Shown: positions 36 through 15,800 of the stretch, piece after piece
Layout: every line of letters begins with the position of its first letter
How positions within the stretch are numbered: position 1 is the first letter of the stretch
IMG/VR virus record: IMGVR_UViG_3300017917_001566
Location: 1-38,922 of that record
Reading direction: 5' to 3' (one strand)
DNA: 38,922 nucleotides
Source: a virus
Position numbers and translations under genes: made by a program
The notes under the pieces: model-generated
The model's database searches: none
What the model was told of the DNA's origin: nothing
Seen by the model: the letters and a program-made list of their open reading frames with translations, nothing else

Positions 36-1181
36 TTAAACTCTAGATCGTTCATTTATGTATTGCTCAAAGCGTTGGGGGAATTCTTGTCGAACTTCCT
101 GTTGCAGTTCGGCCAGGCGTTGTTGATTGTATTTACATACAGTATAACATTCTTTTAAGAAACTTGCAAGATCTTGTTGGCACAAGTCTGTTACAATGTC
201 TACTATACGATCCATACGATCCTGATGATTGTCTATCTGATCAAACGATTCATCTACGACATGCCCAAAAGTACGAAATCCTAAATCGTGTAGGTCACGA
301 TAAAAACCTCGGTTGCTGGCCACTATAAACGGATGTCCTATGGTCAAGGGTTTGGCTATTTTTTCTGTGCGGAAACTGTAAGGACTTTCAGCACATATGG
401 TTTCAGTTACCAAGGAAAAGTAAGTGTCACGATAGGGTTCTGGTGTTAGATATATGTCGCCCCACTCGCGGCGAAACAGTTCTTGTTTGAGGAATGTGAA
501 CCCGGGTTCGATGTGCCCAAATGTGGGATTACGATACTGAGGAACTTCATACTCGTCAGGCAGACGTTGCAATACTGTTTCAGTTGACACTACATTGACA
601 CCATTTTCTACTAGACTAAAGTATCGCTGTCCACTGGGTTTACTGTCCAACATGGTCCAAAGGCTGTGCTCTAGTGCGCCTGTGCGTTTGAGCTTTTCGT
701 ATAGATATTTGCGATGCGGTCTGGCACGACCGTTTAGGAACAGGAACTTGTAGGGCTTGTCAGTCTTGTTAAATATTTCTTCTGTGTGTTGCTGTGCTGT
801 TATGTTTTCTTCGTAGTCCAGGATGTGTGTTAAAAAATGTTCGTGAGTCAATACATCATATTCAGGATCCAGCTCTGCACCACCAATTACTAGTATTTTC
901 TTTTGTCTGACCAAGTCGTCGATCTTGAGCTGTCGTAATTGACTTTCCAGTGTCCAGGCTCCTTCTGCACTGTTACCAAACACCAGAATATATTTGCCTG
1001 TTTCGGCCAGTTCGCGAATGGTTGGCAAGAAATCTAAAAAATGTTGCCGTCCAAATACGTAGATAGAACCCGGAACTGGATTGACTTTTTTAAGATCCCA
1101 AAATGATTGATCAATCCAGGGCTTGAGCAAGTTATAAACTTCGCTCATGGTATCTACTACAAGTCTACGATTGCCTAGCAT
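36..1181 (-). CDS. GT-B / exostosin-like glycosyltransferase
   Basis: Predicted 381-aa soluble protein, last gene of the accessory operon. The C-terminal half (about residues 235-330) has the pattern of GT-B nucleotide-sugar-binding domains: a segment reading SLVTETICAESPYSFRTEKI, then a hydrophobic 'PFIVASNRGFYRDL' stretch, then LGFRTFG and DESFDQI. The 'TEKI...G.PFIV' core is typical of exostosin-like and alpha-1,3-fucosyltransferase-like proteins and is seen in many phage glycosyltransferases. The N-terminal half would be the acceptor-side Rossmann domain. The ATG at 1181 is preceded by AAGGAG ten bases upstream and overlaps the radical SAM gene by 17 bases, so translation is probably coupled. 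An internal ATG at 1148 is possible but lacks such a clear Shine-Dalgarno. Donor and acceptor are unknown. The glycosyltransferase class is inferred from motifs only. Confidence 0.6.
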   Translation of the reverse strand: MLGNRRLVVDTMSEVYNLLKPWIDQSFWDLKKVNPVPGSIYVFGRQHFLDFLPTIRELAETGKYILVFGNSAEGAWTLESQLRQLKIDDLVRQKKILVIGGAELDPEYDVLTHEHFLTHILDYEENITAQQHTEEIFNKTDKPYKFLFLNGRARPHRKYLYEKLKRTGALEHSLWTMLDSKPSGQRYFSLVENGVNVVSTETVLQRLPDEYEVPQYRNPTFGHIEPGFTFLKQELFRREWGDIYLTPEPYRDTYFSLVTETICAESPYSFRTEKIAKPLTIGHPFIVASNRGFYRDLHDLGFRTFGHVVDESFDQIDNHQDRMDRIVDIVTDLCQQDLASFLKECYTVCKYNQQRLAELQQEVRQEFPQRFEQYINERSRV

Positions 1182-2586
1182 GGTATTCGCACTCCTTCCA
1201 CCAGGAGGACATTTCTGGAAAGGTCTTTAAAAAGTCTGTGCCGTGTCGACGATCTGCTTCGCTAAAGAAACGATAAAAGTCAGCTTTGGCCTGATCATGA
1301 TTCTGTTGTTTGCCTGAACGCATCCAGGCAATATCTCTGTCTAGTCTAGCAATTTCATAGTCCTTGAATCCTTTGAATCTTGTTGTAGCAGTTTCTTGAT
1401 GTCTCAGCATCCAGGCCCATAGTTGATCCAAGCGTGACGCATAACTTTCGGGCATGATGTCCAAGCGTTGCCAAGTGGGTTGACGCAGTACTGGAGTATC
1501 AAACCATACCCGCTGATAGGTTGTGCTGTACCGTTCTCTCAAGCGTAAGATACCATCGAACAGTTGGTCCAAGGTAGTGACACTGAGATTGTTCATGGTC
1601 ACTATAAATGTAACGCTGTTACGTCCGGGTATTTCTGTTAGGAACTGATTGACACGACTCCATAACAGTTCGAAATCCAGGCCGTGGCGTATGTATTCAG
1701 CTTGTGCGCCCCAGGCATCTAGGCTAACATACTGCATGAAGTGTTCAATCTTCTCACCTTCGCATAACTGTTTAACATAACCTAAATATTTTTCCCAAGA
1801 CTTTTCATCTACACTAAAGTTTGACGTTACGTTTAAATGCAGTTTAGGACTGGGGTTGGCCAGGACATAGTCAAACACACGATAGGTATTCTTGTCTAAT
1901 AGCGGCTCACCACCGGTCATACGGAAGTGTTCCAGTTCAGGGTATACTGTAGGCCACCACGCCCAGAAAGCTTCTACATAAGGATTATCATGGCTAACAG
2001 GGATAGGCTTATTACGACCGGTGAAATGGCTAGGATCGTTATGAGTAGTGCTTGTAGGGTATCCACCCCACTTGTCAATCTCAGCTTGCCAAGTGCTTGA
2101 AAATTGCGGACTGCAATAACTACAAGCCAAGTTACAAACGTGATTGAAATTAACTTCCATATAGCTAGGGGTAACATCTTCATCTCCTGTTGAATTCATT
2201 ATGGTAGCAAAGTCTTTGGCGGCCCATGGTTCACCTGAACGATAATGACGATCACTTAGTTTACCGTTGTCTTCCATGGTCCAACAATAACTACACTCTT
2301 GCGGGCGCTCTTGTTTTAACATAATCCGGCGCTGTTCTTTCTTGTGCGGAGTATTATGTAATGCACTAGGATTGTCTGCTAGTAGACTGCTGTCAATCGG
2401 ATGCAACGGAGGATGGTAACAGGAGTTGTTGAGTCCTGTGGTTAGGTGCAGGCTTACTTGCTTCCATTTGGCCAAGCACATGGCAGGACCCAGGGCCTCT
2501 TTCATTTCTTCAGCACCGTTTAAGAACTGACTTTTGAAGTTGTTCTTGATCGAATCGCCTTTGTTGTTTAAGAAATTGTTTTCCAT
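1165..2586 (-). CDS. radical SAM protein with N-terminal auxiliary-cluster (twitch/SPASM-like) domain
   Basis: 473-aa radical SAM enzyme. The cluster motif CNLACSYC (C151, C155, C158) binds the SAM-coordinating [4Fe-4S] cluster. MTGGEPLL at about 223-230 is the SAM-contacting GGEP motif. Four further cysteines lie before the radical SAM barrel (C37, C56, C98, C101; the last two as ECSYCW) and could hold an auxiliary cluster. This N-terminal placement is known from phage 'twitch domain' radical SAM proteins. Downstream aromatic-rich segments fit the rest of a partial TIM barrel. The start overlaps the upstream radical SAM gene by 19 bases and has no strong ribosome-binding site, which suggests coupled translation. 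Substrate unknown. Members of the class modify peptides, sugars or nucleosides; the flanking glycosyltransferases favour a glycan- or glycopeptide-related role, which is inference. Confidence 0.85.
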   Translation of the reverse strand: MENNFLNNKGDSIKNNFKSQFLNGAEEMKEALGPAMCLAKWKQVSLHLTTGLNNSCYHPPLHPIDSSLLADNPSALHNTPHKKEQRRIMLKQERPQECSYCWTMEDNGKLSDRHYRSGEPWAAKDFATIMNSTGDEDVTPSYMEVNFNHVCNLACSYCSPQFSSTWQAEIDKWGGYPTSTTHNDPSHFTGRNKPIPVSHDNPYVEAFWAWWPTVYPELEHFRMTGGEPLLDKNTYRVFDYVLANPSPKLHLNVTSNFSVDEKSWEKYLGYVKQLCEGEKIEHFMQYVSLDAWGAQAEYIRHGLDFELLWSRVNQFLTEIPGRNSVTFIVTMNNLSVTTLDQLFDGILRLRERYSTTYQRVWFDTPVLRQPTWQRLDIMPESYASRLDQLWAWMLRHQETATTRFKGFKDYEIARLDRDIAWMRSGKQQNHDQAKADFYRFFSEADRRHGTDFLKTFPEMSSWWKECEYHARQS

Positions 2587-3632
2587 ATGTGCTTTTTAAA
2601 ATTGCCTGGCAAGATATCTAATAAATTTTCATTTCTTAGTTTGTCTAAGTAGGTTATTTGTAGCAGGGTCACAGGAAACAACTGTGTTTGATCCTGCTCT
2701 AACTTGTTACGAATAAGCTGGCATGAGTTTTTATTGTAACCTAAATTTTCTATATCAGTTAGGCACTGCTCAGCCAGCTCTTTGAGATCCTCAGGCAAGG
2801 CTGACAAACACAGGTAATCAGGGTAAGTGAGCGGAAACAATCGGACCTTTTCTTCTTTGAAATATTCCAACAACTCAGCAACATACCAGATATTCATCAA
2901 ACTAACTGTACAGTGTATTTCCAAAGCAAATGCTCGGTAGGACTGTGAAAAAGTTTTGAGTCGTTGTAGATTTTCTTTTACTGTGTTCCAGTTGGTTCCA
3001 GACCTTATGATTTCAGCCTTGTCGCCTACTGCGTCTATGCTGGCAGCAAATGTTACGGATTTAAAGTTTTTCCACAGATCAAATATGTCAAGTGTTTTGT
3101 ATTTAAGCACGGTTAGGTTGGAGTTGTACTGTAGCTGTATGTTGTGGCTTAGGCCTTTATCAACCAACATCTGTAAAATTTCCCAGTGCTCGTGATTGAT
3201 CAAAGGTTCTCCTCCAGTGTAGTACATTCGCTGTAGGTCTGAAGTAAACAGGTAATCCTTGAACGGCATGATGTCTTGTTTAATCAGGGTCTTGACCAGC
3301 TGCCTTTCCTGGGCAATTTGATTGCTGTTGTCAGGGTCACAACTTCGACATTTTATATTACAGAGATTGGTGTTTCTGATATCTAAAAATTGAATACCAG
3401 CACCAGAATTAGGTGTGAATGATTGCCTATAACTAGGCAGGTTGTTGGCTTCGTCTTCAACGCATCTATGACAAACCGCAGCAGGTGTTCCTGTGCGTAG
3501 ATCTTGAAATGGATCTTGAGTTAACAACTCAACAGGTTTTCTGTATGAATAATCGATCAGGCAACAGGGTGCAATGGTGCCATTGCTGTGAAACACTACA
3601 CCGTGATCAATAGCACCACAGGTCCAGGTCAT
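2568..3632 (-). CDS. radical SAM protein with N-terminal SPASM/twitch-like domain
   Basis: 354-aa radical SAM enzyme. CNIKCRSC (C91, C95, C98) is the CxxxCxxC cluster motif, and YYTGGEPL at about 137-144 is the GGEP motif. The N-terminus carries a textbook auxiliary-cluster pattern: C5, then 'GVVFHSNGTIAPCC' (C23/C24), then CHRC (C54, C57). This resembles the 'DG.V.PCC ... C..C' signature of SPASM/twitch domains, placed ahead of the barrel. The frame is open to a TTG at 3638, but the AGGAAGG at 3639-3645 is correctly spaced (6 bases) only for the ATG at 3632. That ATG shares one base with the TAA of the upstream gene (TAATG). It is followed directly by a second, divergent radical SAM gene, suggesting the two act in one pathway or as partners. 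Substrate unknown. Confidence 0.87.
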   Translation of the reverse strand: MTWTCGAIDHGVVFHSNGTIAPCCLIDYSYRKPVELLTQDPFQDLRTGTPAAVCHRCVEDEANNLPSYRQSFTPNSGAGIQFLDIRNTNLCNIKCRSCDPDNSNQIAQERQLVKTLIKQDIMPFKDYLFTSDLQRMYYTGGEPLINHEHWEILQMLVDKGLSHNIQLQYNSNLTVLKYKTLDIFDLWKNFKSVTFAASIDAVGDKAEIIRSGTNWNTVKENLQRLKTFSQSYRAFALEIHCTVSLMNIWYVAELLEYFKEEKVRLFPLTYPDYLCLSALPEDLKELAEQCLTDIENLGYNKNSCQLIRNKLEQDQTQLFPVTLLQITYLDKLRNENLLDILPGNFKKHIWKTIS

Positions 3633-4558
3633 TACCAACCTTCCTGACGTCGGATCACATCCATTTCTCTAGTCATTATGCCTTGATTGTGCCAGTTACT
3701 ACGATAGTGATACTTGAAGAATTTGCTTTCTTCTGGACCGTACATGCTGATAGGTAAGTCTAACTGTTGCTCTAGGTCTTCGGCCACACGTCCTGCTAGT
3801 AGTTCAGGATCACTAGACTCTACAGTTTTCCATAAGTCAGTTAATGCATCAAAGTCCTGTACCAGTTTATGATCCCAATTAGTCAGCATGGTCATGTAGG
3901 TGCCCATACGTGCTCCTGCAATGGACCAGATACCATGGTCAGCATCTCTACCAATGTTTTGCCATATGGTTAGATGGTCCAGGTTGCGTTGATGCACTTG
4001 ATCTCGAAACTCATTTACATCAGGACGTCGACCCTTGTTTAAGCACATCTTGACACCTTCACGGAACCCGGCACGCCAAGCATGAAACTCACTTTGATTA
4101 GGGAATGTGGTACTGAAGCAATCGTGCATGGCCCAGTAGTTGGGATAGAAACAAAACTCTACATCGTTTTCAGCCGATCCATCTGTATTTTCATGTGTAC
4201 GCATGTTGTTAACAAATGTTTGGGTCCAGCTACTGACGCCACCATTGCCGTACATGAGTCCGTTGATGTTGTTCTTGGCACGCCAGCGATACACTGCTGA
4301 CTCCCATTCCGCATCTTTGAATACCAACGTCTGATTAAAAAACTCTGGGTATGGAATATTATCCCCATCAATAAGAATAAAACGTTCTGTGGTACTGGCC
4401 TTGGCGGCTGCTTTGTGTGCGGCATCTGAACCTTTGACTCCGTCTACACGCACAGCCCAGGGCACTATGTTTTTGATCTTGACCCAAAATTCTTCTTTCA
4501 TGGGTTCATCGTAACTAAGGTAAATGCAGTCTAAGTCTGCAACGTCAATTTGTGTCAT
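3632..4558 (-). CDS. GT-A-like glycosyltransferase with DGD motif
   Basis: 308-aa predicted soluble protein. The N-terminal 110 residues look like a GT-A nucleotide-sugar domain: a short beta strand (CIYLSYDE), an alanine-rich helix, and then RFILIDGDN (D64-G65-D66), which matches a DxD metal/sugar-nucleotide motif at the end of a hydrophobic strand. The middle holds a tryptophan- and asparagine-rich region and 'HAWRAGFREGVKMCL', which could form an acceptor site. It overlaps the upstream 118-aa gene by 14 bases, and the downstream radical SAM gene starts on its stop codon. I know no precise family. The glycosyltransferase call rests on the DGD context and the neighbours. It could instead be another nucleotide-sugar-dependent enzyme. 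Confidence 0.55.
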   Translation of the reverse strand: MTQIDVADLDCIYLSYDEPMKEEFWVKIKNIVPWAVRVDGVKGSDAAHKAAAKASTTERFILIDGDNIPYPEFFNQTLVFKDAEWESAVYRWRAKNNINGLMYGNGGVSSWTQTFVNNMRTHENTDGSAENDVEFCFYPNYWAMHDCFSTTFPNQSEFHAWRAGFREGVKMCLNKGRRPDVNEFRDQVHQRNLDHLTIWQNIGRDADHGIWSIAGARMGTYMTMLTNWDHKLVQDFDALTDLWKTVESSDPELLAGRVAEDLEQQLDLPISMYGPEESKFFKYHYRSNWHNQGIMTREMDVIRRQEGW

Positions 4559-4901
4559 ATGTTGTCATACTCCATTTGGTGTGTGGTTGTGTTTCGTTGA
4601 CCACAATACAGATATCGTTAGGCGAACAAGGTGTTCCAGTGTCGCTGGGCGTGAGTTTTTTTACTATACTGGCTGGTTTAAGTTCTTTGATTTTTCCATC
4701 TACCACACGAACATTTAAAGGGCCTCGATGAAACATTTCTGCATCGATCTCTATATAATTATGCGGCATGTCCTCCATGCTGTAACAAATAGGAGTGCCG
4801 TCCTCATTGTAATACAGTCTAAAAAAGATTGGTTTGGTTGGTATGGGTGCTGTTAATATAGCCCAAAATTCTGCTTCAGTCAGGGCTTGATCTTTACTCA
4901 T
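4545..4901 (-). CDS. conserved hypothetical small protein
   Basis: 118-aa protein with no membrane segment and no catalytic motif that I recognise. The central part ('RLYYNEDGTPICYSMEDMPH', then 'YIEIDAEMFHRG' and 'NVRVVDGKI') reads as a small mixed alpha/beta domain and resembles hypothetical proteins I associate with T4-like aquatic phages; this is recollection, not a search result. The last 40 residues are polar with two cysteines (in PCSPNDIC). It lies inside the glycosyltransferase/radical SAM operon and overlaps both neighbours (8 and 14 bases). It could be an accessory subunit or a substrate protein of the radical SAM enzymes. It does not look like a classic short precursor peptide because most of it appears globular. 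Confidence 0.7.
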   Translation of the reverse strand: MSKDQALTEAEFWAILTAPIPTKPIFFRLYYNEDGTPICYSMEDMPHNYIEIDAEMFHRGPLNVRVVDGKIKELKPASIVKKLTPSDTGTPCSPNDICIVVNETQPHTKWSMTTYDTN

Positions 4902-5619
4902 CGATCCAGTCCTTTATGTGATAGTGTACTAGTCCCCATTGCGCCACTGTGTTGATTCTTAATGGATTGTTTTCCCATATCAGTTCCTTGGTCCAGTCTT
5001 CGGAGTGTAGACGGTTGATATGTCGTTTCATGTGTACAATGGTTGGACCCAGGCCTGCGGGTAGTGTCACTTGTTCCTCGCCCATGATCACAGCGGCCAC
5101 AGCATAAACAACATCAGTGGTTGGCTCATCATCGGGAAACTTGAGTAATCTTTTGTACTCAGACCAGTTTTCAAATATACCACGTACCAAAACAAAAAAA
5201 TCCTTGGCAGTTTGACTTACACGCCAGTAAGTAATGGCATTGTACACATCGGGTAGGTTGTTCTCGTCAAATATCTTACGATAGTTTCTAGACGTGGCTT
5301 TTTCATCGTAGAATGTTCTAGCGCCTTGACTAATAACTACATCGCGTCGTTCAAACAGTGTCCACCAATGATCGATTGGGCTGGCGCAAATCATGTCTGC
5401 TTCTAGTTTAATAGTTTGTCTATAAGGACTTACAGCAAACATTTGCCAATCATCTGCAAATCCTTCCTGGCGGCCATAAGGCAACATATTTTCAGTTACA
5501 ATGGTAATATCAGCTTCAGGATGAAACTGACGAATACTATCGGCCAAGCGTTCGGCACACTTGACATATACATCACCAAAGGCTGGAATAACGTAGCCAC
5601 GTTCAGCAAGGATTGGCAA
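4894..5619 (-). CDS. GT8-like glycosyltransferase, paralog B
   Basis: 241-aa GT-A-fold protein of the glycogenin/GT8-like kind. It has an N-terminal strand (GYVIPAFGD), a helix 'CAERLADSIRQFHP', the strand 'ADITIVTEN', and then 'SPYRQTIKLEADMICASPID' around residues 64-83. The usual DxD is replaced by E73-A-D75. The C-terminal part has 'GPTIVHMKRHINR', and the final HYHIKDW is plausibly the late histidine metal-ligand region. It is similar throughout to the next upstream gene (shared SP-x-x-QT-x-x-L[ED]AD block and a shared W-x-x-Y region), so the two are probably tandem duplicates. The start is TTG, supported by AGGAGA five bases upstream; no ATG fits the N-terminus. The substrate is unknown. 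Confidence 0.65.
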   Translation of the reverse strand: MPILAERGYVIPAFGDVYVKCAERLADSIRQFHPEADITIVTENMLPYGRQEGFADDWQMFAVSPYRQTIKLEADMICASPIDHWWTLFERRDVVISQGARTFYDEKATSRNYRKIFDENNLPDVYNAITYWRVSQTAKDFFVLVRGIFENWSEYKRLLKFPDDEPTTDVVYAVAAVIMGEEQVTLPAGLGPTIVHMKRHINRLHSEDWTKELIWENNPLRINTVAQWGLVHYHIKDWIDE

Positions 5620-6400
5620 CTATGTCTCCTAATGTTTTCTTGCCCATGGCATGAAAGTCTTGACCACGCAATTCAATCCAACGCGGTTTCTGCTCTGAGG
5701 TTACAAAGTCTACACGATAGTGATCTGGTGCCAGCTGTGTTAGCTTGTGATCCGGTGTTAGACTGGCTAAGTTCCAGGGTATACCAGAATGGTCAAGTAC
5801 ATGTCCGTTGACTACACCCAGGGCAATAGTCAGGGCATGATCATTGCGATAAGCAGTGAGCCTGTTGTTGTAGATATTTCTATAGTGATTCCAATTATCT
5901 CTAACCATGTTCATAGTTTCAAATATTAATCTAGCCTGTTCACTGCGCCTAAACATCATGACAGTGGCCCACCACATGGGCATGTTGTATGCGCCAAAGT
6001 AGTTTAGATCTGTAAAGTCATGTAGTCCAGTAATGTCATAGGCCCAGCGATGCGCCAGAAAGTCTTGTCGACTGTCCAACACAGTTCGTAATTGATTGCT
6101 GGCCACAACATAATCAGCATCCAAAACTAAAGTTTGACTCCATGGACTAAGTTCATATGCATTGACTCTTGAACCGTTGTGCCAAGTGACTGTAGTTTCG
6201 TAATCTCCAAACCATCGACTATTTTTGCCATCTGAATTGGCAATGATCACCTGCTCAAACTTTAATTCAGTGGGGCGATCAGTTACTAGTGCTACCGGAA
6301 TATCAAGATGTCTGCGTATGTTTTCAGCGCACCATGCGGCCATGGCAACATAGTCTGTCTTTTCATTGTTGTAGGCAAAGATTAATGCGCCAGTGGTCAT
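5603..6400 (-). CDS. GT8-like glycosyltransferase, paralog A
   Basis: 265-aa GT-A-fold protein. An N-terminal strand/turn (GALIFAYNN), the helix 'AAWCAENIRRHLDIPVALVT' and the strand 'SPWSQTLVLDADYVV' with D94-A-D96 form a DxD motif at the end of a beta strand, as in GT8-type enzymes. Later residues (RNDHALTIALG, and a histidine in HVLDHSGIPW) fit the acceptor and metal-binding half. It looks like a paralog of the following gene but keeps the canonical DxD. The ATG overlaps the stop of the 101-aa gene as ATGA with no Shine-Dalgarno, so expression probably depends on coupled translation. Likely a retaining sugar transferase; donor and acceptor are unknown. Confidence 0.68.
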   Translation of the reverse strand: MTTGALIFAYNNEKTDYVAMAAWCAENIRRHLDIPVALVTDRPTELKFEQVIIANSDGKNSRWFGDYETTVTWHNGSRVNAYELSPWSQTLVLDADYVVASNQLRTVLDSRQDFLAHRWAYDITGLHDFTDLNYFGAYNMPMWWATVMMFRRSEQARLIFETMNMVRDNWNHYRNIYNNRLTAYRNDHALTIALGVVNGHVLDHSGIPWNLASLTPDHKLTQLAPDHYRVDFVTSEQKPRWIELRGQDFHAMGKKTLGDIVANPC

Positions 6401-6702
6401 CTATTTTTTGATATGGTTTCGTATTCTACTAGCCAAGCGTTCATTTGTTCTTGCCAGTGTGTGCGCACAATATCGCGAAACTCATTAGGAACAACTTTAA
6501 CAGGTGTGTCATACAAGTCAAGCAACACAGATGTTGGACCGGTACAAGCTGCCAATGTAGCTAACAGTTCAGGCCCAGCAAGCCACATACCTCCTGCGTG
6601 AGCAAATGTTAGTTTGCCTTGATATTTTTCTTTGAGCAGGCGTTTAGCAGCTGCGTGTTCAAAACGAGCACGACTATGTGCGATTAAGTTTTCAGTATCC
6701 AT
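6397..6702 (-). CDS. conserved hypothetical, first gene of accessory operon
   Basis: 101-aa protein. It has a charged N-terminal helix (about residues 4-28, ARFEHAAAKRLLKEKYQGKL), then an AHAGGMW turn, a hydrophobic segment too short and too polar for a membrane span, LLDLYDTPVKV, and a C-terminal amphipathic helix. No catalytic motif is recognised. It resembles small hypothetical proteins next to glycosyltransferase genes in T4-like aquatic phages; I cannot verify this. It opens the operon. Its ATG lies only seven bases from the TATAAT box and has no Shine-Dalgarno, so its message may be leaderless. Confidence 0.7.
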   Translation of the reverse strand: MDTENLIAHSRARFEHAAAKRLLKEKYQGKLTFAHAGGMWLAGPELLATLAACTGPTSVLLDLYDTPVKVVPNEFRDIVRTHWQEQMNAWLVEYETISKNR

Positions 6703-6708
6703 AGGATT

Positions 6709-6737
6709 ATTATACTACAAAAAGCGGAAAAGGTAAA
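6709..6737 (-). promoter_or_regulatory. sigma70-type promoter of the accessory operon
   Basis: On the minus strand, TTTACC (6732-6737) and a perfect TATAAT (6709-6714) are separated by 17 bases. A normal transcription start, about seven bases past the -10, would fall on the A of the ATG at 6702, giving a leaderless first gene. The -35 box lies inside the tail of the terminator hairpin of the upstream structural operon. A host-type promoter suggests that this operon is expressed before the late phase. Confidence 0.65.
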
Positions 6738-6754
6738 GCCCCTTGCGGGGCTTT
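6735..6754 (-). terminator. rho-independent terminator of the structural operon
   Basis: AAAGCCCC, loop TTGC (GCAA on the transcript), GGGGCTTT forms an eight-base-pair perfect stem with a four-base loop. It is followed on the minus strand by TTTACCTTTT. It lies 20 bases after the stop of the last structural gene (6774) and just before the promoter of the next operon. Confidence 0.85.
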
Positions 6755-6773
6755 TGGTAAAGCTACAGTGCCG

Positions 6774-7772
6774 TTAGGCTACAGTTGCAGCAATAGTCGG
6801 AGTACCCCAACTGTTGGTAAGATAAGTTGTACTTGGTGGAATGTAACGTACCAATACAGCAGGTGCTGTACCAAATGTTGTGTATGGACTTGGTGTGTCT
6901 GTACCACCACTGATAGTAGCACTTGTACCTGCGCCCACACTACCGTCACTAACCCAGGTAGTTACCAAAGTTAATGTAGTTGCTGCGGCGTTTTTTGCAG
7001 CAGTAACACGAACGTATTCACCACTGTATGGACTAACTGAGTTGTTCAATTGGAACATTGTTGTAGGCGCCGCGTTAGCAACCAATGTGTACCAACCTGT
7101 AGTTGTCAAGTTTGGACTTGGTGTGCCAGAACCGCCAACACGTGTAAAGCCTGTATAACTTGTACCAGCGATTGTTTGTGCAGCACCGTTAACACGACCA
7201 CTCATGTAAAGTGTACCTACTGTGCCAATAAATGTGTTCCAGTCTGGATCTGTGTCAGTACCAGTGCTAGACTTGCTCATGTCAATACGAACTAAACCAC
7301 CTGCATTCCAGAAATAACGTGCTTGATCAGCACTTGGGAATGTAGTTGTACTTGTAAATGTGATTGTCCAGGCAGCTGTACCAGAACCTGTACCAGTTAG
7401 CTTGGCAATGTTACCGGTCCAAGTTGAGCTGGTTGTTCCAGATGCGGCAGCATTTCCACGAGCAGCAGTGACGTTGTTGATGTCAGTCTGTACGTTGGCC
7501 AATACACTAATAGTGTTACCAGCTGATGGTTGTGTTCTAGAAGTAATTGCTACGTTGGTTTGACTTCCCATACTGGCCAAGTTAGCTACCAATGTTGCCC
7601 ACTGAGTAGCTGTTACTGTTCCACCTGTTGATACGTTTGCTATGGTAGTTTGACCCCACCCGCTGTCAGTGGATCCAGTTGCCCAGACCTGGTTGATACA
7701 GTTTGCTGCTACGTTAGCTACAAAACCATTGTAGTCTGTTGCTTGAATTAAACCACCTGTTGAATATGTCAT
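6774..7772 (-). CDS. virion structural / fibre-like protein
   Basis: 332-aa protein, last gene of the late operon. The sequence is rich in Thr, Ala, Gly and Ser with few charges and no signal peptide, as in beta-rich phage fibre or surface proteins. The N-terminal 110 residues look helical and may be an attachment domain ('GFVANVAANCINQVW', 'LVANLASMGS'). The middle and end consist of beta-strand patterns (AAWTITFTSTTTF, GLVRIDMSKSS, GEYVRVTAAKN, LTLVTTWVSD). A DTDPDW motif is echoed in two other structural proteins here. AGGAAAG precedes the ATG. Position beside the other fibre-like genes supports a virion role. The exact location (tail fibre, collar or head decoration) is not determined. 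Confidence 0.6.
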   Translation of the reverse strand: MTYSTGGLIQATDYNGFVANVAANCINQVWATGSTDSGWGQTTIANVSTGGTVTATQWATLVANLASMGSQTNVAITSRTQPSAGNTISVLANVQTDINNVTAARGNAAASGTTSSTWTGNIAKLTGTGSGTAAWTITFTSTTTFPSADQARYFWNAGGLVRIDMSKSSTGTDTDPDWNTFIGTVGTLYMSGRVNGAAQTIAGTSYTGFTRVGGSGTPSPNLTTTGWYTLVANAAPTTMFQLNNSVSPYSGEYVRVTAAKNAAATTLTLVTTWVSDGSVGAGTSATISGGTDTPSPYTTFGTAPAVLVRYIPPSTTYLTNSWGTPTIAATVA

Positions 7773-7787: not shown

Positions 7788-9062
7788 TTATTTGATTGTA
7801 ACAATGGCTTCAACTGTGCCTTCGCCTGCGTCAGACTTGCTGACCAAAGCGCGACCAATTACATTGAATGCTGTTGCTTCGCCTGCACGTGCAGCCCGAG
7901 CGTAACCATTGCCAGCACTTACAAGACGATCGCCTTTGTTAACTAAACCGATAACTTTAACAGGAACTCGTCCAGTCATTGCAACTGGGGGATGTGTAGC
8001 GTCTGAGCCTGCGGCGCTGTTCATCAAATAAGCAGCTTTTGTACTTATCACACCAAACACAGAATCACTTAATTCTGCACTAACTTTGGTGATTTCAGCT
8101 GTGCCACCTAGCTCAACTACTGTGCCAGCTTCAAGTTCTGTGTCTGCATGGAAACGTTCTGCAACGTCAGCGTAGTTGGCGTTGATTTGATTACCACTTA
8201 CAACACCTGTACTACCATTAATTGTTAATGCATTTGTTGGAGTACCTGCTACGTTGACACGGAAGTACATGTTACCATTGGCTGTTTGGTTAGCAAGGAA
8301 TACACTTGTACCACTTACATAAGCATTGAAGTCGCTGTTTGTACCAACAAATAAACCTGAGTTGTTCAATACACTAACTGTACCTGTTGTACTTGTGTTA
8401 GCATTGTTGAGCATGTATGGCTGACCACCAACAAGGCCTTGTGCCAATGTTGCTGTACCTTGGAACAAAGGAATCTGTGAACCAACCAATGTTGACAATG
8501 TGATACCAGGACGTACAGTAGTAAAGCCAGTCAACGCTACTTGCGGAGTAAATGCAGCGTCTTTGGAAATAATACCAACGATACTATCATTGACAAACAA
8601 CTCAATAACCACGTGGCTTGTACTTGTGTTGTCAATGATTGTTGTAGCGATTGCACCAGTAACACCTGTGCCGCTTGTGTACGCAGGACCAACTACCAAC
8701 CATGTGCTACCTGTGTAGACTTTTAACTGTTGATTAGTTGTATCGTACCATAAGTCACCAGTTACGTTACTGGTTGGAGCACTGGCTTGAGCAGTTGTAC
8801 TACTAACTGTCTTGAATGTGGTGCCGTTATAGACCTTGAGCAAGCCGTTTGCGGTATCCCACCACAACTGACCTGTCAATGGATTTCCAGGAGGTGTGCT
8901 GTTTGCACCATTCTCCAAGAGATGAATAAAGTTGTCATCTAAGAACTGACCATATCCAGCATAGTTTTTGCCGATTAGGGTCTGTGAGCTTGATGTGTTA
9001 ATGGTGCCATCTGGGATTGTTGCAAAGATGGTGCCATTTGTTAAGTTAATTGTATATGCCAT
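7788..9062 (-). CDS. tail fibre-like protein with C-terminal beta-clip domain
   Basis: 424-aa protein. The N-terminal part (to about residue 60) ends in 'FLDDNFIHLLENGAN'. Two copies of a short module follow (GQLWWDTANGLLKVYNGTTF and GDLWYDTTNQQLKVYTGSTW), a repeat common in phage fibre proteins. The C-terminal 130 residues run from NYADVAERFHAD through GTVVELGG, FGVISTKAAYLMNS, VAMTGRVPVKVIG and NKGDRLV. This matches a conserved C-terminal domain of T4-like aquatic phage fibres that is thought to act in trimerisation or capping. The start is preceded by CGGAG and, further upstream, by an ATAAATAA late-promoter motif. Likely a receptor-binding or accessory fibre; the receptor is unknown. Confidence 0.72.
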   Translation of the reverse strand: MAYTINLTNGTIFATIPDGTINTSSSQTLIGKNYAGYGQFLDDNFIHLLENGANSTPPGNPLTGQLWWDTANGLLKVYNGTTFKTVSSTTAQASAPTSNVTGDLWYDTTNQQLKVYTGSTWLVVGPAYTSGTGVTGAIATTIIDNTSTSHVVIELFVNDSIVGIISKDAAFTPQVALTGFTTVRPGITLSTLVGSQIPLFQGTATLAQGLVGGQPYMLNNANTSTTGTVSVLNNSGLFVGTNSDFNAYVSGTSVFLANQTANGNMYFRVNVAGTPTNALTINGSTGVVSGNQINANYADVAERFHADTELEAGTVVELGGTAEITKVSAELSDSVFGVISTKAAYLMNSAAGSDATHPPVAMTGRVPVKVIGLVNKGDRLVSAGNGYARAARAGEATAFNVIGRALVSKSDAGEGTVEAIVTIK

Positions 9063-9083: not shown

Positions 9084-9104
9084 TTATTTATCGCAAGATA
9101 ATCT
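9084..9104 (-). promoter_or_regulatory. late promoter-like motif before the fibre gene
   Basis: On the minus strand, AGATTAT (9098-9104), six bases, then ATAAATAA (9084-9091), ending 21 bases before the ATG at 9062. ATAAATA matches the -10-like element of T4 late promoters, read by gp55-bearing polymerase; a gp55 homologue is encoded at 36400. A second ATAAATA (9110-9116) overlaps the stop of the preceding gene. The same bipartite layout occurs at 28018-28039. Confidence 0.55.
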
Positions 9105-9871: not shown

Positions 9872-12800
9872 CTATATTTGGCCCCGTAAAAACCTTGCAA
9901 TAGGATTGTTAGTATCTTGCAACGGAACACCATCACTGGGCTCACCTATACCTGGATTATACCAATCTACTCCACGGCGAACCAATATAGACACAGCACT
10001 ACCACTAGCTGGTGCAGTGGCAAATGTAATAACCACTGGATCAGACCCGGTTATAGTATAACCCGACATCAATCTTATGCCACCTACGTAAACTTCCACT
10101 GCCAATTCTAAATTAGTGCTATCTTCGGCTGTGCCTAAATCAATTGATGGAGCTGTAAACACTGTGGTGCTACCATCACCTAACGGGAATTGTCTAGTGT
10201 CTGTGTCAATGTTGCTGACCACATAGTTTTGATATTGTTCTGCCAACAAATTGCCCAGTCCCATATCATAAACCAATGACCCTGTTGTATGGTCTGTGGT
10301 TGCAGTACCTGCGGTGCCACGTAATAAACTGCTGACTGTGTTGTTTACAAGATCACGTTCGCGATACATGATACGCTCACCGTCGATTGTGACCACTCCC
10401 CAGATATTGATATCTACTTCTGGCTGGCTTAATGCGCTGGCATTGGTCACATAAATCACATCGTCGGTTGCCAACAGCGGCTGTGCCAATGTTGTTGTTG
10501 TGCTTGGAGTAATACGATAAGTTTGTTGAAGTCCACGCATGTCTTGGAAGATACGGAACGCCATGCCACTATTAACTACGGTATTAGTGAAACTGGTCAC
10601 AACCACGGTAGCTGTTGGACTAATTATCGGGCCAGTGAGTACAATATAACTACCATCAATGGTGTAGCCATCACCGTAGGCAATGAAATTACCATTTAAT
10701 GTCACTAACAGTCTTGTAGGATCTGCTATGGTACGACCTGTGTCAAATCTATTGGTCTGAACTACTGCTCCGGCTTGATAACTAAACGATCCAGGATCTC
10801 CAGTTACTGTTCCTACGTCAAAATCTGTTTCGTCGTAGCCTTCACTGACAGTGATACCTTGACTAGTTGGGCCAACAAATACCTGTGTGTATATGCCCTG
10901 TTCTGTTGGATCATTCCAGGTAATAATAGTAATAGTGTCTCCTGCCTGAGGATTTAGTCCTTGGCTTGGTTGGAACGTAATTTGATTGCCACTGATAAAA
11001 TATTGAGCTACTGTTCTTACACTGATCAAAACTATTTGTCCAGCAGTTGGAGCAGTTGCTAATGTTACAGTGCGAGGACTTACAGTGTATGGGTCAACAA
11101 AGAAATCCACACCCAATACCAATACAGTCTGGTTAATATAAACTGCAACATCGTTGTCGGCTACCAAGGCCTGACTGTAGTTGCCTGACCATGGCAAATC
11201 ATAAGTTACTGTACTGCCGTCGCTGACATAGCGAGCGCCTTCATAAGGTCTAGCACGAACACCATTGCGTTCTACAATGATATTGGGTACATTGGTGCCT
11301 TGCAGGCTAGCATACGAAGCTAGATTATAAGTTAAACTACCATCAGCAATGAAAGTTTGGAATACTGGTAAACTCCAACTGTGTGTTGGTCCTGTTGCAG
11401 CATAACCCAAGGTACAAAGATTGATACGATTGGTATCATTATATGTTGCTGTGAATGTGACTATGGTTTGATTTCCTACGCCAGCGGCATAGGTGTAATC
11501 TACTCCATTGAACAAAGGTATTTCGCCGTTCCAGATAGCAAATTCACTGATCATGTCTATGTTGAAAGGTACTGTAACCGTGTTGCCGTTGGTCAATTCA
11601 CTGCCAAGATAGGTATTCAAATACAATTGATTGCCACCACCAATGCCAGTTACTAATACTTCAAGAGTATCCCCTGGTTGAATAACATTTGTAGCAGCAA
11701 TACCAGTTAGGTTAATAGTGTAGGTTGGCCAATAAAATGCAGCAGGATCATAGATGCTAGGATCAACTACAACACCTGTGGTAACATTAAACAAACTTAC
11801 AGTAAATGCATATGGTAGCATGCCACTGAAATCTAGGTACGGATCGGCTGGATCATACACATAACGGCGTGTTGCTGTAGGGAATCCGTGTCCGTCGCCT
11901 GACCAGTCACTACCTGGTGTGGTATAAACACGGAAATCTAAGGTATCAAATTCACTACCGGGTACTAGTTCTTCTGGAGCATGACTGCTGTAGGTATCAA
12001 TATAAGCACCACCATCTACATTGATATCTGTAGGAGCTGTGCCAGTTGGAATTGGTCCTGTTGCAGGTGTGCCATAGTAACTGGCATAGAAAGTATCTAA
12101 AATACCATAATCGTATGTTGGCAAGCCGTTGGCATCAAGACTTATGTTGTCAAATGGATTGATGTCAAAATTACCAACGTCAAAGCCAGTGTTTTGATTG
12201 TACAATGGTCCTTTGACCTGAACGCCAGGGTAACTAATTCCATTGATCAACAATGGTAAATCTAATCCTGGCTCGTTAGGAGTAGGAGAATAGTAACCCA
12301 TAGTGCGGTTTGCACCGCTTAGGGTGTCTGCATCAACCAAGGTCCAATCGCTGGTTATAAAAATTGATGTGTTTACTGTACTGTTAGCTGACCATACAGT
12401 GACCTGACCTGTACTGTCTTGATAGCGCACAAGTGTTCCTGTAACATAAGTGGTATTGGGTTGCCACTCAATTATCTGACTTGTGTATTCACAACGGTCG
12501 TACTTGATTACAGTTTTAATTGAACGAACAAGATCGTTGCCCATTAATGCTACTGCCAACGCAATGGTTCCAACATAGACCAATGCCACAGTTCCGTTGG
12601 CTTGATCTTCTGCACCTTGCGGAGGTATGGTTCCTAATACTCCGTTGTTGGCCACGCGATAAATGTTGTTGTCTTGATTGATATAGGCGTTGGTAGTAAC
12701 AGCCACTAATGGTTCCCAATAGATCCAATCAGTTGGAATACCGCCGCCGGAAATAGTTAATGTAGCAGTGGTACTGTAGCCTTCACCAGGGTTGACAATG

Positions 12801-15800
12801 TTGACTGCTACCAATTGTCCAGCACTGTTGATAACTGCTGTCATAGTAGCTGGAGTTATGCAGGTTCCTGTAACAATAACTTCAGGTGCAGTAACATATC
12901 CTGCGCCACCCGATGCCACAGTCACACTCTGTATGCCTAGTAGATAATTGTTATACCATTGCTTCCATGGATCAAGAGTCCAAACTTCAGCGTTACTTGG
13001 AGTGTCACTGACATCATTCTGTACTGAAGTCAAGGCGTGATCATACGGCAATAGTACTGGGCTTACATACTGAGGAATAGGCAAGGCTGTGTTCCAGTAA
13101 GCAGGAACGTCAAAGTCTGTTAGGCTACCTGGGTAGGTATCTTGACCATAGTAAGCCAAATTAAATTCACGAACTTGAACGTGATAAGGTTTTACTTCTT
13201 GAATATAATCCAACACAAAGGTCTGATTATCTTGCATAAAGGCCTGGAACGGAATCAATGCACGAATCTTGTGTTCAACATCAATCAAACTGGTCTTCAT
13301 TAACCATTCCGGAGTTGTAAATTCTCCGTAGATAAAGTTAAACATCAATATTAACGCACTGTTGCGCTCGATCAACAAATCATCAATTAACAGTTCTTCG
13401 TTGATGGCTTGAATAATTTTGCGTGTTTCAATTACAGGCTCTTGGTCAAAATACTGAGCATCAAAAATTTCAACGTCAAATCCAAAGTTACCAACACCGT
13501 AGTTCCATAATTCTTCTTTGAATTCAATGGTACCATCTTGTAGACCCACACGAGACCAACCAGTGTCAGCACGTAGATAAATTTCAAATTTGCCTTGTCC
13601 ATTAGCTGTAACTTTTGCACTGCCGCCAACAGGTACATCTTCTAGAGTAAGAGTATCTAAGCCACTGCGATTTGCAACTTCAGCTAGAGGCTGAATTGTG
13701 CTGTTGTATCCTGGCAAATACCAGTTGATGTGTTGCCAATACAGTTTGGTATCGTAGTTTTGAATACGAACTAGATTTAATACTCGTTCGCCTGGCAATA
13801 AACCATTTTCAACTTGATAAATGGTCCAGCGACCTTGTTGTGTGCTGTCTGACACTACCAAGTACAAGTAGCCAATAGGAACTACAGCAAGATTTTGATA
13901 GCCTAGTTCTTCTAAGTTGGCCACACGTTTGTTCCAGGCACCTGAATTACTACTTGGCTCTGGCTCACTGCTGTTCAACAATGAAAAACTGCGGCTTTCG
14001 GTAATTGGGAACTGTGCCAAAACTTTGTTAACACGTGTCAAGTAATTTTCAAGTGCAGCAAAACGATCTGCAAACATGCTCTGACGTGGACGGAATTGTA
14101 CACCATAACGTTCAGCTGGACTTAGTGTTGGATCTGGAACGGCAGCGCCGGCTTCATCAACACCGCAGAAACTGTCCTGTAGTTTGCGATACAAGGTAGC
14201 ATTCAAGAAACTATCTGGACGACCAGCTGCAACAAATTGATATTCTTGGTGTATGTTGTTGTCGCTTCCTAAGGCCTGGCGATCGTAACCAATGTGCAAG
14301 ATTGTGTCTTGTGCCGAAATCAAGTCAAGAGCATTGTAGATTGCAACTGTGCTGGAGTTAAGAGCAGCAATGTAAGGAATGCCACTGGTACGTGGGCTTT
14401 CAATATAACTGGCAATACCAGTGGTACTGAGAGTTTTACCTGCGCCTGTGTCAATAGAAGTAATGCCACGTACCCAGAAATAGTAAGTGGTCTCAATGAT
14501 GTTTTGTTGATTAAGAGCAGTATTAACAGTGTAACTGGTTGTGCTCAACGGAGTACCAGGGCCAGTATAGTTTACTGGAGTAACACTACTAGCTACCCAT
14601 TGGTAGATATCTACACGACTGCCTGGGAATGTTTGTCCCCAACGACGACTTGCATAGGTTATACTGTCTTGACTTGGATCAATAAAACGCACTGTGTCTG
14701 TGTCCCACCAGATTTCACCAACGTGTTCTTTGGCCCATGAATTACCAACATTATGTACTGTGCCTACATTGTATTGTGCTGGATCTACTGCACCAATGTA
14801 GTCAATGTTTCTACGTGCGGCACCCAGTATCTTGCCTTGTAACGGATTGATAAAATCAAAATAGGTTGTGGTCTTGCTCAACAATTTGTCATAGGCATAA
14901 ACACCTGTGATAAGATTTGTGTCCACTTGTGCTTCTTGTAAGTGTTTGACTTGCCAAACTGGTTGATCAGTTGTGTTGTCAAATACACTGACTTGTCCAT
15001 AGTTTAATGCTACAGAATCAAGATCACTGCCAGGAGCACCTACCAGTAATCTACCACTGGTATAATTAACTGCGGCACCAAATTGATCACTAGTTTTTAC
15101 ATTAGAGTTGTAAACTTGCTGACCAAACGCAAATTGTCCTGGATTAGTTGCTGACTGATTATAGCTTGGTAGATAGTCGTAAGTGTACACAACGCCACTG
15201 TTGATCACTGTGGAAATAAATGTAGTACTACGATCATCAAAGTATGTTTCGCCACCGTCAAAAATCACAGGCTCGATAGCATTGCCATTTGGTGCACCTA
15301 CTACTAAATTATTACCATCGGTATTGATATCAATGGAACTACCAAAATATGCAAAGTCCTGAGCAACTGGCGGAACAATTTCTTGGGTGAATACATAGGT
15401 ATTGAATCCAAGATCATCGTAGGTTGTGCCAATTACACCAGGAAGAACAGTCAACATGTTCTTGGGTTCGGCGGCTAAAGCATTTTTAACACTGATTGTC
15501 ATGCGACCCGACACTACCAAGATAACACTCTTGGCGCCAGGTGCTGTAACAAAGTTTATTTGTTGAGTAGTATTGTTATAGGTATAGTCTACGCCGGCTG
15601 TCTTGAGCACGTTGTCTACATACACCACTGTGGTGTATGCACTGGCAGCAGAATAGATGGTTCCAACATCAAATACCTTGGTATACCCATCGCCCACAAA
15701 AGTCAAATCAGGTGTAAGCATGGCAGTAGCATTGGGTATGTTGGCTGCATTAATTGCTGCTACCAATCCTGCTATGTTTTGATTTGGCGAGTTAGGAACC

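What the first reader, a model, noticed from the sequence alone, without database searches (positions are those of the whole stretch)
36..6702. Compact glycosyltransferase plus double radical SAM cassette
Eight genes overlap or touch (4-19 bases at each junction), behind one host-type promoter: four glycosyltransferase-like proteins, two different radical SAM enzymes with auxiliary-cluster domains, and two small conserved proteins. The tight coupling suggests one pathway that modifies and glycosylates a common target, for example a virion protein, a host surface glycan or a small molecule. I know of no described pathway with this gene set.
Basis: partly seen in the sequence, partly recalled or inferred. 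Interest (0 to 1): 0.75.

Follow-up and report, generated by a model that had tools for sequence, protein, structure and literature searches.

The report
Phage sugar-transferase and five-radical-enzyme operon
Large freshwater and marine relatives of phage T4 carry, beside their tail genes, a long and deeply conserved operon of sugar-transferring enzymes and five different radical enzymes that probably builds an unusual modified sugar on a virus or host molecule; the cassette seen here is its first part, cut off by the end of the contig.

Summary
In detail: eight co-directional genes (36-6702, minus strand) overlap by 4-19 bases behind one sigma-70-type promoter. Both radical SAM proteins belong to one subfamily (NF033640). 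A has a GT-B-like fold, D a GT-A-like fold; F and G are a homologous pair with a conserved acidic motif.

The window shows only part of the unit. Relatives continue H-G-F-E-D-R0-[slot]-R1-R3-R2-R4-x10-carbamoyltransferase, with five NF033640 paralogues. The order holds down to about 45-50% identity. In 117 of 118 distinct loci a radical SAM gene follows D. Window genes C and A are slot cargo, not core.

The unit starts behind a conserved terminator and a sigma-70 -10 site 5-7 bases before the H start, whereas tail gene J has a T4-type late promoter. The products are soluble.

Best explanation: a cytoplasmic pathway builds a glycan tailored by radical enzymes, most likely on tail proteins, or else on host LPS core. 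The target is unproven. Campylobacter phages CP220/CPt10 carry a comparable five-radical-SAM module, so 'no described gene set' was too strong. New variant of a known kind.

The parts
36..1181 (-). A: 381 aa, GT-B-fold glycosyltransferase-like; fast-diversifying slot gene between R0 and R1
   Evidence: AlphaFold pLDDT 91.5; top PDB folds PglA (prob 0.90) and SdgB (0.85), E about 0.01, most others GT-B enzymes; 61 subclusters at 58% identity; absent or replaced in divergent loci
1165..2586 (-). B = R0: core NF033640 N-twitch radical SAM protein, 473 aa
   Evidence: 315.0 bits against cut-off 170; in R0 clade with divergent R0, support 0.994
2568..3638 (-). C: NF033640 radical SAM protein, 356 aa; cargo in the D-R0 slot
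   Evidence: 233.9 bits; sister to R6, support 1.0; most relatives lack it at this place
3632..4558 (-). D: 308 aa, GT-A-fold glycosyltransferase-like, core
   Evidence: 69-78% identity across loci with invariant D-G-D-N; model pLDDT 81.7; PDB and viral fold matches dominated by GT-A glycosyltransferases and sugar nucleotidyltransferases
4545..4901 (-). E: 118 aa conserved small protein of unknown role
   Evidence: alignment A4, 8 invariant columns; no useful family match
4894..5619 (-). F: 241 aa, GT-A-like, homologous to G
   Evidence: F and G align with conserved acidic motif (LDAD/LEAD); phrog_1903 (unknown function) match
5603..6400 (-). G: 265 aa, GT-A-like, homologous to F
   Evidence: alignment A3; same BLAST family as F
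6397..6702 (-). H: 101 aa conserved first gene of the operon, unknown role
   Evidence: 22 invariant columns; recognised also in nine divergent contigs
6709..6737 (-). sigma-70-type promoter TTTACC-17-TATAAT, -10 ends 6 bases before the H start (possibly leaderless mRNA)
6735..6755 (-). intrinsic-terminator-like hairpin (AAAAGCCCCGCAAGGGGCTTT) that ends the tail-gene unit
   Evidence: conserved in the I-H gap of relatives
6774..7772 (-). I: 332 aa Ser/Thr-rich presumed tail/virion protein directly upstream; candidate target
   Evidence: always upstream of H in relatives, also divergent ones; role inferred from position
7788..9062 (-). J: 424 aa virion/tail protein with C-terminal IMC-peptidase-like domain; candidate target
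   Evidence: sub-threshold Peptidase_G2 23.3 bits, virion-protein PHROGs
9085..9092 (-). late-promoter-like GATAAATA upstream of J
   Evidence: ATAAATA upstream of J in 96 of 97 distinct relatives

Best explanation
The eight genes are the promoter-proximal part of a conserved 12-13-gene operon, H-G-F-E-D-R0-[slot]-R1-[slot]-R3-[slot]-R2-[slot]-R4-x10-[slot]-x11, of large T4-like phages. Shown: order, conservation, own sigma-70-type promoter behind a terminator, five intact NF033640 paralogues, GT-like folds, soluble products, interchangeable sugar-modifying cargo. Inferred: host RNA polymerase makes the enzymes before or independently of the late tail genes. D, F and G (and slot GT-B enzymes such as A) assemble a short glycan from nucleotide sugars in the cytoplasm. 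The N-twitch radical SAM enzymes carry out successive C-H reactions (epimerisation, oxidation or deoxygenation) on sugar residues or the carrier. x11 carbamoylates it, and slot enzymes give strain-specific decoration. The most likely acceptor is a phage tail protein encoded next door (J or I), so that virions carry a variable, chemically unusual glycan. Target and chemistry are not shown.
For: Operon order in about 160 loci, in loci found independently with G, and at lower identity. Radical SAM gene within 6 kb of D in 117 of 118 distinct loci. R0, R1, R3/R5 and R4 are orthologous clades older than the split of the lineages, supports 0.99, 0.88, 0.73, 1.0. R3-R2 fusions in L373, L374, L401. 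All members over 300 aa examined keep CxxxCxxC, and three auxiliary-cluster Cys are invariant. Terminator plus sigma-70 -10 and late promoter at J. J and I directly upstream of H in all nine divergent contigs read. Cargo: SDR epimerase, DegT aminotransferase, carbohydrate kinase, amidinotransferase-like proteins; carbamoyltransferase at the end. Only 1 of 1974 downstream proteins has two or more membrane spans (control 12% in bacterial flanks). NF033640 genes are interleaved with GT8-family genes in Vibrio phage K566, a separate lineage.
Against: No target is identified. The promoter type separates the operon from the late tail genes, whereas a virion-decoration system could be expected in the same unit. 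GT folds match solved structures only at E about 0.01. Most NF033640 genes elsewhere in these genomes have no detected GT neighbour. In bacterial chromosomes the commonest neighbours are radical SAM/SPASM, PhyH, GDSL and carbamoyltransferase proteins rather than GTs. Most SPASM/twitch radical SAM enzymes known modify peptides (general knowledge).
Confidence: 0.4

Rival explanations
1. The operon modifies the host's LPS core or other surface glycan early in infection, blocking superinfection or masking receptors; soluble GTs extend the core on the inner leaflet and radical SAM enzymes tailor it.
For: Non-late sigma-70-type promoter; rapidly varying cargo resembling O-antigen gene pools; split RfaE-like kinase and nucleotidyltransferase genes in some loci; GTs of pelagimyophage host-recognition clusters were read this way (PMC7029224); Brachyspira plasmid with six or more radical SAM genes, GTs and rfb genes, proposed for LOS biosynthesis or glycosylation (PMC4267127).
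Against: No membrane GT, flippase or polymerase, which excludes a self-contained O-antigen route but not LPS-core GTs; unbroken linkage to tail genes I and J over deep divergence needs another reason.
Confidence: 0.3
2. Radical SAM enzymes modify a peptide or protein (RiPP-like or tail-protein side chains), with H or E as substrate or partner, and the GTs then glycosylate the modified residue.
For: Twitch/SPASM radical SAM enzymes commonly act on peptides (general knowledge); small first gene H and second small gene E are conserved; D's weak fold matches include the peptide S-glycosyltransferases SunS and ThuS.
Against: H and E are conserved along their length without an obvious variable core, unlike RiPP precursors; cargo is sugar-directed.
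Confidence: 0.15
3. Hypermodification of phage DNA bases with tailored glycans.
For: GTs, carbamoyl- and amidino-type enzymes and radical SAM enzymes occur in DNA hypermodification pathways (general knowledge); an early promoter would fit; a TET-associated GT is among D's weak viral fold matches.
Against: No thymidylate-synthase-fold enzyme in 17 related contigs of 138-364 kb, search control positive; no TET/JBP match, though that control was uninformative; linkage to tail genes, not replication genes.
Confidence: 0.08
4. The genes are loosely associated cargo in a hypervariable region, each serving its own small-molecule or surface pathway, with no common product.
For: Many slots exchange genes; NF033640 genes also occur singly elsewhere; H-G-F-E-D occurs without the R0 array in seven loci.
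Against: Core order and orthologous radical SAM groups are kept at about 45-50% identity; translational overlaps and gene fusions.
Confidence: 0.07

Closest known systems
Radical SAM module of Campylobacter phages CP220 and CPt10 (Firehammervirus; PMC2853527)
   Same: T4-like phage; 11-12 radical SAM genes per genome; interchangeable module of five with an amidinotransferase; annotated next to two nucleotide-sugar-transferase-domain proteins and close to baseplate/PAAR genes
   Different: Its radical SAM proteins score at most 31 bits against NF033640 (cut-off 170); no match to the H, D, F/G or A families was found; interpreted there as metabolic and probably non-essential
Host-recognition cluster of pelagimyophages (PMC7029224)
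   Same: Variable island by the tail fibres with glycosyltransferases and radical SAM cassettes
   Different: Described as variable and non-syntenic; no conserved five-radical-SAM operon reported; sequences not compared here
NF033640 radical SAM/GT clusters of Vibrio phages K566/K567
   Same: NF033640 members (two over cut-off in K566) interleaved with GT8-family genes and a GT4-like gene
   Different: About 24% identity; not the same order; not beside a detected J-I tail pair
Brachyspira hyodysenteriae 36-kb plasmid cluster (PMC4267127)
   Same: Run of radical SAM genes with GTs and rfb-type sugar genes, proposed for LOS biosynthesis or glycosylation
   Different: Plasmid, not phage; subfamily not tested here
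Virion glycosylation systems of mycobacteriophages (cited in PMC12619734)
   Same: Phage-encoded GTs acting on virion proteins; works-like resemblance only
   Different: No radical SAM array known to me; target shown there, not here

Membership tests
NF033640 N_Twi_rSAM (twitch-domain radical SAM protein) | Score above curated cut-off of 170 bits | tested here: met
   B 315.0, C 233.9 bits
NF033640 N_Twi_rSAM (twitch-domain radical SAM protein) | CxxxCxxC radical SAM motif and N-terminal auxiliary-cluster cysteines | tested here: met
Glycosyltransferase (A, D, F, G) | GT-A or GT-B fold | tested here: inconclusive
   A: GT-B folds dominate matches, best E 0.009, prob 0.90. D: GT-A folds dominate, best E 0.011 in PDB. 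F and G not modelled
Glycosyltransferase (A, D, F, G) | Curated family match (Pfam/NCBIfam) | tested here: not met
   none for A, D, F, G or for 31 members of A
Glycosyltransferase (A, D, F, G) | Transfer of sugar from an activated donor | not testable with these tools
   needs biochemistry
CP220/CPt10 radical SAM module | Homologous radical SAM proteins of the same subfamily | tested here: not met
   at most 31 bits to NF033640; phmmer of CP220 proteins hit only other radical SAM proteins and the amidinotransferase-like cargo family
CP220/CPt10 radical SAM module | About five radical SAM genes with GT-like and amidinotransferase genes in a T4-like phage | tested here: met
   the amidinotransferase is cargo here, not core
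Phage virion glycosylation system | Glycan on a virion protein | not testable with these tools
   needs virion mass spectrometry
O-antigen/Gtr-type serotype conversion | Membrane GT, flippase or polymerase | tested here: not met
   1 of 1974 downstream proteins with two or more predicted spans
DNA base glycosylation pathway | Enzyme that makes a hydroxymethylated base (thymidylate-synthase fold or TET/JBP) | tested here: not met
   none in 17 contigs; contigs may be incomplete, and the TET control did not ring
RiPP cluster | Precursor peptide with conserved leader and variable core | tested here: inconclusive
   H and E are conserved over their length

The most novel reading that the evidence does not exclude
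A phage-encoded pathway, ancient in T4-like aquatic phages, in which five non-redundant N-twitch radical SAM enzymes act in sequence on a glycan attached to tail-fibre or baseplate-proximal proteins, giving virions a radical-tailored, carbamoylated and strain-variable sugar coat at the host-recognition site. This would be a kind of protein glycosylation chemistry not known from any virus.
Probability: 0.25. Interest if true: 0.88.

Novelty: new variant of a known kind. Interest (0 to 1): 0.63.

Why it matters
Contigs of these phages carry up to 21 genes of one radical SAM subfamily, and five of them form an operon with glycosyltransferase-like genes that has survived deep divergence. The conserved gene list gives a defined substrate question (R0 to R4 in order), the conserved promoter gives a timing prediction, and an isolate with a related cluster (Vibrio phage K566) makes the question testable at the bench. 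It would extend radical SAM chemistry to viral glycans and explain an oddity noted since 2010, the excess of radical SAM genes in some T4-like phages.

Tried and rejected
Sequence searches of A, D, F/G and x10 profiles against solved structures gave nothing useful. Megablast and most tblastn searches of isolate phages gave no relatives. The radical SAM alignment A7 was too diverse for a contig scan. K566's radical SAM as a single query found no confirmed relative in viral contigs. Bacterial neighbourhoods of NF033640 were meant to reveal a GT association; Pfam tallies showed radical SAM/SPASM, PhyH, GDSL and carbamoyltransferase but no GT among the 25 commonest families, so they do not support a universal GT link. 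'Two different radical SAM kinds' was rejected: one subfamily. 'C is part of the core' was rejected: slot cargo. 'A is core' was rejected after divergent loci lacked it. A self-contained O-antigen system was rejected for lack of membrane enzymes. DNA modification was kept as a weak rival. R2 of the divergent loci could not be shown monophyletic, because best-HMM labels there mix in extra radical SAM genes.
Full report
CHECK OF THE OBSERVATION. Eight minus-strand ORFs lie at the stated coordinates and overlap by 17, 19, 7, 14, 8, 17 and 4 bases. I call them A (36-1181), B, C, D, E, F, G and H (6397-6702) in order of coordinate; transcription runs from H to A. B and C are both over the NF033640 (N_Twi_rSAM) cut-off. 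The rest have no curated family match. Upstream are tail or virion genes I, J, K, a 4887-aa ORF, baseplate genes, and on the other strand a late sigma factor and an SbcD/gp47-like gene. The window is therefore a 38.9-kb piece of a T4-like phage, held as a virus record.

GLYCOSYLTRANSFERASE CALLS. AlphaFold models from alignments of relatives give pLDDT 91.5 for A and 81.7 for D. A's best structural matches are the GT-B enzymes PglA (prob 0.90, E 0.009) and SdgB (prob 0.85), and most of the list is GT-B. D's are GT-A enzymes: cellulose synthase, hyaluronan synthase, TarS, SunS and sugar nucleotidyltransferases (best E 0.011), and among viral models mostly named glycosyltransferases. F and G belong to one family with an invariant Asp in an LDAD/LEAD motif. 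I take all four as glycosyltransferase-like; activity is inferred.

THE WINDOW SHOWS ONLY PART OF THE UNIT. Searches with B and D brought 159 IMG/VR loci. The common order is tail genes, K, J, I, H, G, F, E, D, R0 (= B), A, R1, R3 or R5, R2, R4, x10, x11. Between D and R0, R0 and R1, R3 and R2, and R2 and R4 are slots with variable cargo. C occupies the D-R0 slot and is sister to R6, found in the same slot elsewhere. x11 is a carbamoyltransferase (PF02543). x10 is unknown. Cargo read from sequence and Pfam includes SDR epimerases, a DegT aminotransferase, a PfkB/RfaE-like kinase, amidinotransferase-like, sulfotransferase-like and SGNH-hydrolase-like proteins, extra radical SAM proteins (some with B12-binding domains) and methyltransferases. 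The sulfotransferase and SGNH labels are my reading of motifs, not tested matches.

DEPTH OF CONSERVATION. A second profile search reached contigs at 40-55% identity, some of which I take from their project numbers to be marine (not verified). H-G-F-E-D-R0-R1-R3-R2-R4-x10-x11 is recognisable in many of them, while A is absent or replaced. Upstream of H, J and I are present in all nine divergent contigs read. In a tree of 170 sequences, R0, R1, R3 (with R5 and a few bacterial sequences) and R4 of near and far contigs form clades with support 0.994, 0.88, 0.73 and 1.0; R2 could not be tested this way. R3 and R2 are fused in L373, L374 and L401, and an R2-like domain is fused to R4 in L358. All core paralogues keep their cluster motifs. 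Separate, intact, ordered paralogues argue for non-redundant steps.

LINKAGE TEST. Taking distinct D proteins with at least 4 kb downstream, 111 of 118 loci have R0, six have other radical SAM genes and one (L231) has none within 6 kb. On the other hand, 17 large relatives carry 5-21 NF033640 matches each, and of 25 non-core copies examined in three contigs, 22 have no A/D/F/G homologue within 4 kb. Many of these sit as single genes between replication or packaging genes (names from sequence reading). The detector covers only my own four GT families, so other GTs could be missed. So D and its radical SAM genes are tightly linked, but the radical SAM subfamily is not tied to GTs in general.

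REGULATION. J is preceded by ATAAATA in 96 of 97 distinct relatives (exact TATAAATA in 50; background 0.03 per kb), the T4 late-promoter type. After I comes a conserved hairpin with T-tract, then a sigma-70 -10: exact TATAAT 5-7 bases before the H start in 70 of 98, at most one mismatch in 97 of 98, against 0.6% exact in shuffles. The -10 is so close to the start codon that the mRNA may be leaderless. Divergent contigs mostly keep the feature; two (L419, L421) have a candidate further upstream. The operon is thus insulated from late tail transcription and read by host-type polymerase; early timing is inferred.

CELLULAR PLACE. Of 1974 proteins of 90 aa or more downstream of H in these loci, one has two or more predicted spans; the same crude hydropathy scan finds 12% in bacterial flanks and 0.4% in other regions of these phages. 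So the pathway is soluble, which rules out a self-contained O-antigen assembly but not LPS-core transferases.

MECHANISM. I favour a cytoplasmic glycan pathway with radical tailoring and a neighbouring tail protein as acceptor (0.4), over host LPS-core modification (0.3), peptide modification (0.15), DNA hypermodification (0.08; no thymidylate-synthase-fold enzyme in 17 contigs with a positive control) and unrelated cargo (0.07). The linkage to I and J over deep divergence is the main reason for the virion; the non-late promoter is the main reason for doubt.

COMPARISON WITH WHAT IS KNOWN. Campylobacter phages CP220 and CPt10 have 11-12 radical SAM genes, five of them in an interchangeable module with an amidinotransferase (PMC2853527); the GenBank record adds two nucleotide-sugar-transferase-domain proteins beside it. 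Their proteins are not NF033640, so this is a functional parallel, not membership. Vibrio phage K566 has NF033640 genes interleaved with two GT8-family genes and a GT4-like gene, an independent recurrence in an isolate. Pelagimyophages (PMC7029224) and a Brachyspira plasmid (PMC4267127) show related combinations. Paper searches found no description of the five-gene NF033640 operon; the held library is open-access only.

LIMITS. ORFs were called mechanically; contigs are fragments and partly redundant; kinship groups come from HMM best hits; promoter and timing claims are sequence-based; fold matches have weak E-values; the host is unknown.

Noticed in passing
G011, G014, G015 (L321-L335): Single NF033640 radical SAM genes are inserted between core replication or packaging genes (for example between gp47-like and gp46-like genes in L321), like mobile or moron genes; up to 21 family matches in one contig.
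   Followed up: partly
window 6703-6715 and relatives: The -10 site lies 5-7 bases before the H start codon in most relatives, which implies a leaderless transcript for the first gene.
   Followed up: partly
L320:8558-10608 and L332:4004-6102: Just beyond the array, a conserved opposite-strand group of two A-like GTs, an amidinotransferase-like gene and a SPASM-like gene, echoing the CP220 combination.
   Followed up: no
L055/L058 (x24), for example L058:6318-7238: A slot gene that looks like a periplasmic TctC-type solute-binding protein with signal peptide, odd in a phage and perhaps a hint to a Burkholderiales-like host.
   Followed up: no
L253-L277 (Elusimicrobia bin MJ-2014_bin-0981): One bacterial metagenome bin has NF033640-like genes on more than ten separate contigs, a large expansion or a contaminated bin.
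   Followed up: no
L249 and L251: Arrays of R0/R1/R2/R3/R4-like genes in contigs binned as Oligoflexia and Bacteriovoracaceae; bacterial array or unrecognised phage.
   Followed up: no
window 9872-24535: A single ORF of 4887 aa upstream of the tail genes K-J-I.
   Followed up: no
L357-L362 and others: R3 in a subset of phages has an extra N-terminal stretch of about 140 aa of unknown nature, perhaps only an extended ORF start.
   Followed up: no
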